Notes under the pieces: model-generated | What the model was told of the DNA's origin: nothing | Seen by the model: only the letters and a program-made list of their open reading frames with translations | Database searches by the model: none | Source: Phycicoccus avicenniae | GTDB taxonomy: Bacteria; Actinomycetota; Actinomycetes; Actinomycetales; Dermatophilaceae | DNA: 64,000 nucleotides | Reading direction: 5' to 3' | Assembly (NCBI RefSeq): GCF_018139485.1 | Contig: NZ_JAGSNF010000003.1 | Span: forward strand, 1-64,000 | Translations under genes and position numbers: made by a program | Shown: one piece after another, positions 17,451 to 25,312 of the stretch | Numbering within the stretch: position 1 is the stretch's first letter | Layout of the letters: each line of letters opens with the position of its first letter

Positions 17451-18061
17451 GCGACCCCCTCGCGGGGCTGCTCGCGCGGCCGGTGCTCGAGGTCGCGCCG
17501 CGGCTGCTCGGCGCGACGGTCACCCACGACGGGGTCACGGTCCGGCTCACCGAGGTCGAGGCGTACGCCGGCGCCGACGACCCGGGCTCGCACGCCCACC
17601 GGGGTCGGACGCCCCGGAACGCCGCGATGTTCGGCCCGGCCGGCCGGCTCTACGTGTACTTCACGTACGGCATGCACTTCTGCGCCAACGTCGTCACCGG
17701 AGCCGAGGGCGAGGCGGCCGCCGTCCTGCTCCGCGCGGGTGAGGTCGTCGACGGGCAGGAGCGGGCGCGACGCGGGCGGGACCGGCTCGCCGCCCGGGAC
17801 CTCGCCCGCGGCCCGGCGCGGCTCACCGTCGCGCTCGGGCTCGGGCGCGGCCACGACGGACTCGACCTCCTGGCGCCGGGGGCCGGAGTCACGCTCACGC
17901 CACCGGCGGTCCCCGTCGACACCACTGCCGTGCGGGCCGGGCCGCGGGTCGGTGTCCGCGGACCCGGCGGCGACGGGGACCGCTTCCCCTGGCGGTTCCA
18001 CGTCGCCGGCGATGCGACCGTCAGCGCCTACCGCCCCGCCGCACCGCGCCGACGGTCCTGA
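17420..18061 (+). CDS. Alkyladenine (3-methyladenine) DNA glycosylase, AAG/MPG family
   Basis: About 213 residues. It excises alkylated purines such as 3-methyladenine for base excision repair. [20 protein letters not shown] contains the catalytic Glu, and [19 protein letters not shown] with MHFCANVV are diagnostic of the family. No ATG lies near the N-terminus; GTG 17420 is the closest standard start and overlaps the end of argH by 31 bases (an in-frame CTG at 17447 abuts the argH stop). It therefore rides on the arginine operon. Its 3' end overlaps the convergent monooxygenase by 41 bases. Confidence 0.9.
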
Positions 18062-19082
18062 GGGCTCGGTCGCGTGCGCCGCTCCCGCGGTCGAGCAGGG
18101 CGAGCCGCATGAGCGCACCGGACGCGACCCGCGCGGCCTGGGTCGGGGGCAGCCGTCGGGCCTCGTACCCGGCGGTCCCGCGGCCGCTGCGCAGGGCCGA
18201 CGCGAGACGCACCGCGTCGAGGACGGCGTCGCAGGCTCCCCGGCCGAGGTTCGGGGTCATCGCGTGGGCTGCGTCGCCGACGACGACGTAACGACCGGAG
18301 GCGTAGCGCCGCAGCGGCGGGGCCGTCCAGAGGCGGGTGGCGGAGGTCGTCGCCGGGTCGGCGGAGGCGAGGACGTCCCGTGCCCGGCCCCCGGCCCCCG
18401 AGAACACCTCCCGGGCCTGGCGGAGGGCCGTGTCCACGTCGAGAGGCTCGACGCCCTCGTCGTCGCAGTGGGTCGCGAACCAGTAGCCGCCGGCGGGAGA
18501 GGGCACGAGCCCCAGGAGGCGCCCGGGCCCCCAGTACTCGCCGACGTCGGCAGGGGCGGGCCGCGTCGCGAGGGCACCGCGCAGGGCTACCCACGGGGTG
18601 CCCCGCCGTCCGGCACGGCGCGGGTCCACGAGGCCGCGCACCCGGCTGCGCACTCCGTCCGCGCCCACGACGAGGTCGGCGTCCAGCTCCTCGGGGTCGT
18701 CGACCTCGGCCTCGACGAGGCGGGCGCGACGGGGGAGCGAGGCCGTGAGGGCCGCGAGGAGGTCGGGGCGCTCGACGACGTGGAGCGGCATCCGGTGCGG
18801 GCGGGTGAGGGGACGGCCCTCGGCGTCGAAGACCCGCCCGCTGCCGGCCGCCGTCATCCGCTCGCCGAGGAGGGGCCGCACGCCGAGACGGTCGAGGGCC
18901 CGCAGGGCGCTCGGCCAGAGGACGAGGGACGCCCCGAGCCCGGCCCGCTCCGGCCGGGCCTCGTGGAGGGTCACCTCGACGTCGTCACCCAGCGCGGCGG
19001 CGAGGGTCAGCCCGGCGATGCCGGCGCCGACGACGGCGACGCGGCGGGCGGGGGAGCGGGGCACCGCGTCAGGCTGCCACAC
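18021..19082 (-). CDS. FAD-dependent monooxygenase
   Basis: 353 residues, PHBH-type flavoprotein. The FAD-binding GxGxxG appears in VAVVGAGIAGLTLAAAL, the DG motif in DLVVGADGVRSRVR, and the FAD-ribityl GD motif in VVVGDAAHAMTPNLGRGAC. Such enzymes hydroxylate aromatic or polyketide-like rings with NAD(P)H and O2; the substrate is not evident. Start GTG at 19082 lies 15 bases after the stop of the large pyruvyl-transferase/GT8 gene, so it is probably the last gene of that minus-strand unit. It overlaps the glycosylase gene tail to tail. Confidence 0.87.
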   Translation of the reverse strand: MWQPDAVPRSPARRVAVVGAGIAGLTLAAALGDDVEVTLHEARPERAGLGASLVLWPSALRALDRLGVRPLLGERMTAAGSGRVFDAEGRPLTRPHRMPLHVVERPDLLAALTASLPRRARLVEAEVDDPEELDADLVVGADGVRSRVRGLVDPRRAGRRGTPWVALRGALATRPAPADVGEYWGPGRLLGLVPSPAGGYWFATHCDDEGVEPLDVDTALRQAREVFSGAGGRARDVLASADPATTSATRLWTAPPLRRYASGRYVVVGDAAHAMTPNLGRGACDAVLDAVRLASALRSGRGTAGYEARRLPPTQAARVASGALMRLALLDRGSGARDRALRTVGAVRRGGRR

Positions 19083-19097
19083 CGGGTGGGCGGAGGG

Positions 19098-23499: not shown

Positions 23500-23500
23500 G

Positions 23501-25312
23501 TCAGACCCCCGCGGGCGTCAGGACGAGGTCGGCGGCCGTGCGCACGGCGTCCTCGACGTCGTCGAGGGTGCGGTCGTCGACACGGTCGTCGGTCGTCAGC
23601 GGGTCGAGGTCGAGACGGCGCAGGTCGAGCCCGACGACGGCCGGGGTGAGCGACATCCCGAGGCCCACGCCGCGCACGTAGTCCCCGTACTTCACGCCCG
23701 TCCCGTGGACGGCGTCCTCGGCACCCGCGAAGGTCACGAGGGCACAGGGGATGCCGTAGCTCTGGCACGCGACGAGGACGTGCATCGCGCTCGTCACGAC
23801 GCGGTCGTAGGACACGAGCGTGCGCACGAGGTCCTCGACCTGACCCGGGGTCCCGGCGAGCACGGACAGCTCGTCGGTCCCCTCCGGGAGGATCGTCGGG
23901 AGGTCGCGGTGGCGGACGTGGCGGACGAGGGCGACCCGGCCGTTCGTCGCGCCGCGCTCGAGCGGCAGCACCCGCCGCAGGAGGGCGCCGGGGTCGCCGA
24001 AGCGCTCGACGTCGGGACCGCCCGAGGCACGCAGCGCCGCCGCCGTCACGGGGCCGCGCACGGAGACGTAGCGCGCCGCCGGGTCCAGCCACGTGTCGCT
24101 CTCGCTGACGCCGGTGCCGACGACGACCGACGAGGCACTGACGAAGCGCCCGATGGACCCGACCGCGACGAGGTGCGGGCTCGAGGTGCGGGCCGTGGGC
24201 GCCTTGTAGGCGACCGCCCGACCGGACAGGGCCTGGAGCAGGTAGGGGCTCAGCCAGTCGCCGAAGTTCCCGGGGAAGGGTCGGGACCACCAGCTGAGGG
24301 GGAGGGGCTCGCGGCCGTCACCCACCGCCAGGTAGTGGGCGTAGGCCGTGGCCGCCTCGTGCGCGGCCCGCTCGGCGGCGCTCGGGCCGCCCGCGGCCTC
24401 GACGGCGGCCATCCCCGCCTCGACCCGGGCGAGGTCACCCCGTTGCCCGGCGGACACCATCGTGCGGACGGCGGCCCGGCGCGCGACCGCCGTGGCGTCA
24501 CCGCCGCTCGGCAGGCCGGCGACGGGGTCCGAGGCCGTGAGCAGGTGGGTGATGCCGAGCCGGTCGGCGGCGTCACGCGCCTGACGACGGGCTCCCGCGG
24601 GCAGCCGGTGGTGGACCGCCTTCGCCGTGCGGTGGGCCAGCGTCGTGACCCGCTCCCGAGGTCCGGGTCGCGCCCCGGACCCGACCGGTTCGTGCTGCAC
24701 GACCTTGTCCCGGTACTCGGCGACGTTGCCGCTCGAGCCGAACCGGAAGAACTGCGGCACCCCCGGCAGGTCCGCCCCACGTCCGACGACGGCCGCGGAG
24801 GGGATGACCTGGAAGCTCATCCCCGCCGCGCGGGTCCGCCATGCCTCCTCGAAGAAGTAGTCGTCGGTGGCCTTGAGCGACGAGGAGCGCTCCAGGGCGG
24901 CGGCCGTCGCGACGAAGTCCCGGGCGCTCGGGGTCGTGTTGATGCCGAAGAAGCAGGGCTCCCAGAAGCGGGTGCGCCGGCCGTAGCCGATCGACAGGGG
25001 GTCGGCGAACCCGCGCTGAAAGCCGATGACGTCGGCGGAGAAGTCGGCGACGAGGTCGGGGAGGTCGACGAGCGAGCAGTCCACGTCGATCCAGAAGACC
25101 TTCTTGTCCGGGTGGGCGCGGCAGGCCGCGTCGAGGATCCCCACCTTGCGCCGGGTCATGTCCGCCCAGTCGTCGTCCGGACCCTTGACCAGCCGATGGA
25201 CGTCGTGGGGGATCCCCTGGGCGTCGAGGCCCGCACGCAGGGCGTCGGCGAAGCCGGTGTAGTACGGGTCGGCGGTGTGGAAGGAGCAGACGACGAGGTC
25301 ACCGCGTGGCAT
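23501..25312 (-). CDS. Glycosyltransferase / polysaccharide pyruvyl-transferase fusion
   Basis: 603 residues. The N-terminal part (about 1-200) looks like a GT-A nucleotide-sugar transferase: CSFHTADPYYTGFADALRAG, then KVFWIDVDCSLVDLPDL with a DVD metal site at 76-78, and SSLKATDDYFFEEAW. The C-terminal part (about 342-600) is pyruvyl-transferase-like: FPGNFGDWLSPYLLQALSG, VAVGSIGRFVSASSVVVGTG, RYVSVRGPVTAAALR, VERFGDPGALL. The domain order is opposite to that of the 925-residue protein in the same unit. ATG 25312 follows GGAG; it heads the minus-strand unit. Likely role: decorating a cell-surface glycan, possibly with pyruvate ketals. Confidence 0.82.
   Translation of the reverse strand: MPRGDLVVCSFHTADPYYTGFADALRAGLDAQGIPHDVHRLVKGPDDDWADMTRRKVGILDAACRAHPDKKVFWIDVDCSLVDLPDLVADFSADVIGFQRGFADPLSIGYGRRTRFWEPCFFGINTTPSARDFVATAAALERSSSLKATDDYFFEEAWRTRAAGMSFQVIPSAAVVGRGADLPGVPQFFRFGSSGNVAEYRDKVVQHEPVGSGARPGPRERVTTLAHRTAKAVHHRLPAGARRQARDAADRLGITHLLTASDPVAGLPSGGDATAVARRAAVRTMVSAGQRGDLARVEAGMAAVEAAGGPSAAERAAHEAATAYAHYLAVGDGREPLPLSWWSRPFPGNFGDWLSPYLLQALSGRAVAYKAPTARTSSPHLVAVGSIGRFVSASSVVVGTGVSESDTWLDPAARYVSVRGPVTAAALRASGGPDVERFGDPGALLRRVLPLERGATNGRVALVRHVRHRDLPTILPEGTDELSVLAGTPGQVEDLVRTLVSYDRVVTSAMHVLVACQSYGIPCALVTFAGAEDAVHGTGVKYGDYVRGVGLGMSLTPAVVGLDLRRLDLDPLTTDDRVDDRTLDDVEDAVRTAADLVLTPAGV

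What the first reader, a model, noticed from the sequence alone, without database searches (positions are those of the whole stretch)
18021..25312. Glycan unit with two oppositely ordered glycosyltransferase/pyruvyl-transferase fusions
Five tightly packed minus-strand genes. The first product (603 residues) is GT-A then pyruvyl-transferase-like; the fourth (925 residues) is helical domain, pyruvyl-transferase-like, then GT8. Between them are an ABC-exporter-like membrane protein with no ATPase and a GT2 enzyme; an FAD monooxygenase follows 15 bases after. Domain motifs are seen in the sequence. That the unit builds a pyruvylated or otherwise modified surface glycan is inference. The mirror-image domain order, with no separate transferase genes, is unusual and suggests a self-contained undescribed pathway.
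Basis: partly seen in the sequence, partly recalled or inferred. Interest (0 to 1): 0.75.

Follow-up and report, generated by a model that had tools for sequence, protein, structure and literature searches.

The report
Cell-wall sugar and pyruvate gene cassette
A small set of four genes, sitting beside an unrelated older gene, most likely adds sugars and pyruvate to a wall polymer of an actinobacterium; its three-gene core recurs in many actinobacteria, where the enzymes behind such pyruvate-bearing wall polymers are a known gap.

Summary
The five genes and both domain orders are there, but the unit is four genes, not five. Five same-genus loci keep argF-argR-argH-mpg-FAD without the glycan genes, so the FAD monooxygenase is an older resident. 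The other four mix two modules. Module 1 is P603 + membrane protein (TM) + GT2: in the 80 loci kept of 121 relatives, TM is present in 61 and GT2 in 58. Module 2, P925, often sits in teichoic-acid-type loci. Both pyruvyltransferase calls hold by motif: the published motifs are kept in 51-52 of 52 P603 rows and 19 of 19 P925 rows. P603's N-terminal 'GT-A' part and TM match no convincing Pfam family. In 7 of 7 relatives with TM fused to a second pyruvyltransferase domain, that domain has lost key residues, suggesting a docking pseudoenzyme. The unit is not self-contained: wall-polymer genes lie on another contig. Most likely it decorates a wall-teichoic-acid-type polymer. No structure was obtained. 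New variant of a known kind.

The parts
23501..25312 (-). P603: N-terminal DxD domain (residues 1 to about 240, probable glycosyltransferase, unassigned) + C-terminal ketal-pyruvyltransferase domain (about 340-560)
   Evidence: PF04230 26.8 bits over cut-off 25.3; D76, D78, R419 in 52 of 52 rows; N349, G351, D352, H511 in 51 of 52; no family for the N-terminal part
22729..23499 (-). TM: 256-aa membrane protein, hydrophobic segments near 25-40, 62-71, 119-151 and 197-219 (probably six spans)
   Evidence: hydropathy averaged over 35 aligned rows; no Pfam family in the window protein; directly after P603 in 46 of 80 loci, present in 61
21872..22732 (-). GT2 glycosyltransferase, 286 aa, start revised
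   Evidence: PF00535 27.7 bits over cut-off 23.3; present in 58 of 80 P603 loci
19098..21875 (-). P925: N-terminal part of unknown kind, pyruvyltransferase-type domain (about 278-605), GT8 domain (647-890)
   Evidence: PF01501 80.9 bits over cut-off 24.3; N298, G300, D301, R427, H523 in 19 of 19 rows; PF04230 at E<=1 in 14 of 19 rows, not in this protein itself
18021..19064 (-). FAD monooxygenase: resident neighbour, NOT part of the unit
   Evidence: keeps its place beside mpg in 5 of 5 same-genus loci that lack the four glycan genes

Best explanation
A decoration module for a cell-wall glycopolymer of wall-teichoic-acid type. P603 is a two-in-one enzyme: its N-terminal DxD domain adds a sugar from a nucleotide sugar, and its C-terminal domain takes pyruvate from PEP and closes a cyclic ketal on that sugar or its neighbour. 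GT2 adds a further sugar. TM is a membrane platform that holds P603 and GT2 at the inner face of the membrane, where the lipid-linked polymer is built. P925 is a second two-in-one enzyme (pyruvyl transfer, and a GT8 sugar) of a family often found in teichoic-acid-type loci. The backbone and export come from a separate wall-polymer locus on contig C19. Shown here: gene order, domains, motifs, recurrence of the P603-TM-GT2 core, resident status of FAD, a wall-polymer-type locus elsewhere in the genome. Inferred: the reactions, the sugars, the platform role of TM, and that C19 makes the acceptor.
For: Motifs NxGD, RxxxS/T and H of characterised ketal-pyruvyltransferases (PMC10629545, section 9 read) are kept in 51-52 of 52 P603 rows and 19 of 19 P925 rows. 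TM is present in 61 of 80 P603 loci, GT2 in 58 of 80. Natural fusions join TM to GT2 (1 of 80, L125) and TM to a second pyruvyltransferase domain (6 of 80, plus L100), where the D of NxGD and the H are lost in 7 of 7. In Demequina (L054) two exporter genes, P603, GT2 and P925 follow one another on one strand (exporter homology). Homologues of genes of the host's C19 locus recur beside P925 (Glyphos_transf type 11 of 20, acyltransferase 9, exporter permease 7, cytidylyltransferase 6, CDP-alcohol transferase 6 of 20) and beside P603 (GT2 25 of 80, sugar dehydrogenase 13, CDP-alcohol transferase 12 of 80); of 40 ordinary window genes, 38 have none beside P603 and 40 none beside P925. The genome has five Glyphos_transf matches and, at E<=0.001, no PF04230 match other than P603. 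Pyruvylated teichoic acids of actinobacteria are known chemically (PMC6801904, section 3.4 read).
Against: P603's N-terminal domain has no family match. PF04230 membership does not prove pyruvyl transfer, and P925 itself does not reach that model. In P603 the residue two before the key His (R337 of Pvg1p, R306 of CsaB) is Ala in 50 of 52 rows, Ser in 2. Seven Paracoccus loci (gram-negative) have P603 without TM or GT2; in L179, the one checked, capsule-type export genes follow, so the polymer need not be teichoic acid. In the host P603 is not in the C19 locus, and the link to C19 rests on homologues elsewhere; the C19 GT2 belongs to a large superfamily, so its 25 of 80 may be partly unspecific; most genes of the other stretch read (C21) have no counterpart. 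In three Demequina genomes P603 with GT2 or TM-GT2 stands in a run of ribosomal-protein genes, with no further glycan gene recognised by eye. All exporter names rest on NCBIfam scores below the curated cut-offs.
Confidence: 0.6

Rival explanations
1. The unit acts on a glycan other than teichoic acid, such as a capsule, an exopolysaccharide or a membrane glycolipid, and the C19 locus is unrelated.
For: Paracoccus L179 has P603 followed by KpsE-, ABC-ATPase- and KpsM-type genes; an Aquiluna locus (L155) has P603-TM-GT2 after a sugar-dehydrogenase-like gene (read by eye) and a GT2; in L111 and L122 no polymer gene was recognised by eye near the core.
Against: P925 and several P603 loci lie with cytidylyltransferase, CDP-alcohol transferase and Glyphos_transf homologues, and the host has such a locus.
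Confidence: 0.25
2. The PF04230-type domains are not pyruvyltransferases but GT-B glycosyltransferases or binding domains; the proteins are two-headed glycosyltransferases like WbbM.
For: Pyruvyltransferases share the GT-B fold (PMC10629545, section 9); the P925 profile is closest to the GT8 part of WbbM and to LgtC; one Arg is replaced in P603.
Against: The three published motifs are kept in nearly every row of both families; the better of two PDB sequences listed for the P925 domain is WbbZ, a proven pyruvyltransferase, over an RLH-centred stretch, though only at E 0.24.
Confidence: 0.15
3. TM is a lipid or glycan flippase, not a platform; the unit carries its own transport step.
For: Hydrophobic segments are spaced 1+1+2+2, a plan that I recall as that of ABC exporter membrane domains.
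Against: No transporter family below E 0.1 among the 25 of 37 Pfam families shown for 35 rows; the only PDB sequence listed is an ion channel at E 0.11; hhalign with one ABC exporter gives probability 0.2% over 34 columns; TM is absent in 15 of 80 loci that have 4.7 kb or more downstream of P603, and four P603 genomes (G258, G410, G411, G469) have no TM match anywhere at E<=0.001.
Confidence: 0.2
4. Chance neighbours with no common role.
For: P925 is far from P603 in three genomes.
Against: P603 followed directly by TM, with GT2 also present, occurs in 36 of 80 loci; P925 occurs in 6 of 9 genomes with full-length P603 against 25 of 387 others (Fisher p 1e-5, not corrected for kinship).
Confidence: 0.03

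Closest known systems
WbbY-WbbZ of Klebsiella O1 antigen (PMC10629545: abstract, passages, section 9)
   Same: A glycosyltransferase and a ketal-pyruvyltransferase act in turn on one glycan; same three motifs as here
   Different: Two separate proteins there; fused here, twice, in opposite orders
CsaB of Paenibacillus (PMC10435577, passages) and Pvg1p of fission yeast
   Same: PEP-dependent ketal-pyruvyl transfer on a surface glycan; conserved Arg and His
   Different: No GT domain described in the passages seen; the residue two before the His is Arg there and Ala in P603
WbbM (6U4B), dual-domain O-antigen polymerase with a GT8 C terminus
   Same: Best solved match of the P925 profile, over the GT8 part (E 6.5e-23)
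   Different: Its other domain is DUF4422/GT111 (recalled), not a pyruvyltransferase
Wall teichoic acid loci with ABC export (TagGH type)
   Same: Many P925 and some P603 relatives lie in loci of this type
   Different: The window unit has no polymer or export gene of its own
Pyruvylated teichoic acids and wall glycans of Nocardiopsis, Brevibacterium, Promicromonospora (PMC6801904, section 3.4)
   Same: The likely kind of product
   Different: Known as chemical structures; section 3.4 names no enzyme for them

Membership tests
Ketal-pyruvyltransferase (PF04230), P603 C-terminal domain | Pfam curated cut-off | tested here: met
   26.8 against 25.3 bits; 11 of 11 rows of A1, the window's included, match at E<=1
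Ketal-pyruvyltransferase (PF04230), P603 C-terminal domain | NxGD, RxxxS/T, H motifs (PMC10629545) | tested here: met
   51-52 of 52 rows; H in 79 of 80 loci by pattern and in the last (L187) by eye
Ketal-pyruvyltransferase (PF04230), P603 C-terminal domain | Arg two before the His (R337 of Pvg1p) | tested here: not met
   Ala in 50 of 52, Ser in 2; that Arg is not among the motifs listed in PMC10629545 section 9
Ketal-pyruvyltransferase (PF04230), P925 middle domain | Pfam curated cut-off | tested here: not met
   No hit in P925 itself; best of the family 25.2 against 25.3 bits
Ketal-pyruvyltransferase (PF04230), P925 middle domain | NxGD, RxxxS/T, H motifs | tested here: met
   N298, G300, D301, R427, S/T431, H523 in 19 of 19
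Ketal-pyruvyltransferase, both | GT-B-type two-Rossmann fold | not tested
Ketal-pyruvyltransferase, both | PEP-dependent activity | not testable with these tools
   bench work
GT8, P925 C-terminal domain | PF01501 cut-off and DxD | tested here: met
   80.9 against 24.3 bits; D744 and D746 present; across the family D1 in 8 of 19, D2 in 12 of 19
GT2 | PF00535 cut-off | tested here: met
   27.7 against 23.3 bits
GT-A glycosyltransferase, P603 N-terminal domain | DxD motif | tested here: met
   D76 and D78 in 52 of 52
GT-A glycosyltransferase, P603 N-terminal domain | Match to a known GT family or fold | tested here: inconclusive
   No GT family in 25 rows, no relevant PDB sequence; no structure
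ABC exporter membrane domain, TM | PF00664 or similarity to an ABC exporter | tested here: inconclusive
   Not among the 25 of 37 families shown; hhalign 0.2%; but a real exporter also lacks the hit at E 0.01
Self-contained wall-polymer locus | Own polymerase and exporter | tested here: not met
   None among the five genes; wall-polymer-type genes on C19

The most novel reading that the evidence does not exclude
P603, TM and GT2 form an undescribed membrane-docked enzyme complex in which TM, a membrane family with no convincing Pfam match, recruits a glycosyl/pyruvyl two-in-one enzyme through its pyruvyltransferase domain; in several lineages TM carries a dead copy of that domain for docking. 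P603's N-terminal domain would be a new glycosyltransferase family. The system would account for much of the pyruvylated wall polymer of actinobacteria, freshwater lineages included.
Probability: 0.35. Interest if true: 0.7.

Novelty: new variant of a known kind. Interest (0 to 1): 0.55.

Why it matters
Actinobacterial wall polymers with ketal pyruvate are known as structures, while a 2019 review calls knowledge of the enzymes scarce (PMC6801904: abstract and sections 3.4 and 5.3 read). The cassette names candidates that can be deleted or expressed. It also holds two protein parts without a convincing Pfam match that recur widely (P603 in 121 database stretches; TM in 61 of the 80 kept), and a dead-enzyme fusion that hints at how such enzymes may be held at the membrane.

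Tried and rejected
Five-gene unit: rejected, since the FAD gene keeps its place beside mpg in 5 of 5 same-genus loci without the other four. FAD was found in 5 of the 11 other same-genus genomes searched; the other six were not looked at further.

Mirror-image domain order as a shuffled duplicate: not favoured. Profile comparison of the two pyruvyl domains gives probability 21%, E 0.001, 90 columns; of the full proteins 4.8%, E 0.0083, 37 columns. The stretches aligned do hold the shared H motif, so distant kinship is not excluded.

Finding P603's N-terminal domain by Pfam and PDB sequences, and TM by Pfam and PDB sequences: nothing useful. First scan of genome contigs with P925 alone: 21 pattern matches, no relative.

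The second job was never collected for that reason. No fold search was run.

Papers: eight searches, of which I saw the listings only (up to 20 rows each); none of the titles or abstract starts seemed to describe these fusions. Opened: PMC6801904 (abstract, outline, sections 3.4 and 5.3), PMC10435577 (passages), PMC10629545 (abstract, outline, passages, section 9). Subscription papers and supplements were not seen.

Rows dropped before counts: L065 and L068 were left out of the P925 alignment (18 of 20 fetched loci used, plus the window); the P603 alignment A4 took 47 of the 80 loci plus the window, L049, L096, L100 and L101; 41 of the 121 relatives were not returned.
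Full report
What is there. The window is bases 1-64000 of contig C10 of a genome of 3.54 Mb in 26 contigs, an actinobacterium by its relatives. My gene caller gives, on the minus strand in order of transcription: P603 (23501-25312), TM (22729-23499), GT2 (21872-22732), P925 (19098-21875) and the FAD gene (18021-19064). Genes 1 to 4 are 1 base apart or overlap by 4 bases.

Domains. P603 passes the PF04230 cut-off over residues 407-526, and 11 of 11 rows of its first alignment match that family. 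Its first 240 residues match no GT family (25 rows) and no relevant PDB sequence but carry a DxD kept in 52 of 52 rows. P925 has GT8 at 647-890; its profile is closest among solved structures to WbbM and LgtC. Its middle part does not match PF04230 directly; 14 of 19 rows of its alignment do at E<=1, none above the cut-off as far as shown. The motifs that a 2023 study lists for ketal-pyruvyltransferases (NxGD, RxxxS/T, H; PMC10629545 section 9) are kept: in P603 N 51, G 51, D 51, R 52, S/T 52, H 51 of 52; in P925 N, G, D, R, S/T and H in 19 of 19. Against this, the residue two before the His is Ala in 50 of 52 P603 rows, and the two domains are only weakly joined by hhalign (probability 21%, E 0.001).

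The FAD gene is a bystander. A search of 12 genomes of the genus found it in 6, the window's own included. In the five others argF-argR-argH-mpg-FAD is kept; tyrS follows in four of them (directly in two, past one other gene in two) and the fifth contig ends first; the four glycan genes give no match at E 1e-15 in any of the five stretches. In the family-wide search none of nine other same-genus genomes had P603. The four genes therefore sit in a variable slot between FAD and tyrS. Their GC (0.73-0.77) and GC3 (0.94-0.97) are like those of the neighbours, so import from a low-GC source is not indicated.

The core cassette. A pattern scan of species genomes found 121 relatives of P603; the best 80 were kept. 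In these, TM is present in 61 and GT2 in 58; TM follows P603 directly (gap -20 to 59 bases) in 46. Of the 19 without TM, 7 are Paracoccus, 8 have GT2 but no TM, and 4 have under 2.3 kb of contig left. A quick tree puts the seven Paracoccus rows in one clade (100), in a set with the window and two Demequina rows (97), but the window is a long branch and the root is arbitrary.

Fusions. TM is fused to GT2 in one of 80 (L125, Demequina activiva) and to a second pyruvyltransferase domain in six of 80 and in L100. In 7 of 7 of these domains the D of NxGD is E or N and the His is P or G, while the R is kept. I read this as a dead domain used for docking to P603, and TM as a platform. That is inference.

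P925. Among 396 genomes of the order, 31 have P925 over most of its length and 5 more match in part. In 9 of 396 P603 is full length at 48% or better, the window's own included; a tenth (G285) is at 30%, and 23 more match in part. P925 occurs in 6 of the 9 and in 25 of the other 387 (Fisher p 1e-5; kinship not corrected). It is far from P603 in G075, G258 and G354 (about 36, 86 and 96 kb), and near it in the window, G410, G469 and 4 of 80 loci (one of these, L145, is G469). Flanks were at most 10 kb and often shorter. The GT8 DxD is lost in many relatives (D1 in 8 of 19, D2 in 12 of 19), so the pyruvyltransferase part seems the constant one.

Link to wall polymer. In Demequina G469 (L054) an exporter permease and ATPase, P603, GT2 and P925 stand in that order on one strand. 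The ATPase's best NCBIfam model is TagH (192 bits, cut-off 320), the permease's a galactan exporter (98 bits, cut-off 380), so the names are by homology only. The host genome has five Glyphos_transf matches, four of them on C19. The C19 stretch holds cytidylyltransferase, CDP-alcohol transferase, nucleotide-sugar dehydrogenase, acyltransferase, exporter permease (just under the Pfam cut-off) and GT2 genes. Homologues recur beside P603 (GT2 25, dehydrogenase 13, CDP-alcohol transferase 12, permease 4 of 80) and beside P925 (Glyphos_transf type 11, acyltransferase 9, permease 7, cytidylyltransferase 6, CDP-alcohol transferase 6 of 20). Of 40 ordinary window genes, two had any beside P603 (2 and 1 of 80) and none beside P925; on the C21 stretch only one gene had any (2 of 80, 7 of 20). 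This is homology at E 1e-12 and half coverage, in a stretch chosen for its Glyphos_transf matches, not proof of orthology. P603 gives the only PF04230 match of the genome at E<=0.001. In Paracoccus yeei (L179) P603 stands before KpsE-, ABC-ATPase- and KpsM-type genes, again below NCBIfam cut-offs, so the polymer can differ.

Verdict. A known biochemical theme (glycosyl plus ketal-pyruvyl transfer) in an unusual, recurrent and, as far as my eight searches show, undescribed arrangement. The mechanism above stands at 0.6. The most novel reading, a membrane-docked complex with a new GT family and a dead docking domain, stands at 0.35.

Noticed in passing
L115, L116, L118, L119, L174, L177, L100 (TM-pyruvyltransferase fusions): The second pyruvyltransferase domain, fused to TM, has lost the Asp and His of the active-site motifs in 7 of 7.
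   Followed up: partly
L097, L098, L099 (three Demequina genomes): P603 with GT2, or with a TM-GT2 fusion, stands inside a run of ribosomal-protein, nusG- and rpo-like genes, recognised by reading the first residues.
   Followed up: no
L056-L067 (P925 relatives): The GT8 domain has lost one or both Asp of its DxD in many relatives while the pyruvyltransferase part stays intact.
   Followed up: no
L178, L180, L181, L182, L188 (Paracoccus): A second, distant P603-like protein (26-29% identity) lies a few kb downstream of P603, past an ABC ATPase match.
   Followed up: no
window 27663-32834: An rRNA operon (16S, 23S, 5S by Rfam) follows tyrS, about 2.4 kb from the unit; no tRNA was found in the window.
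   Followed up: yes
window 18021-18061: The FAD gene and mpg converge and overlap by about 40 bases, as in same-genus relatives.
   Followed up: partly
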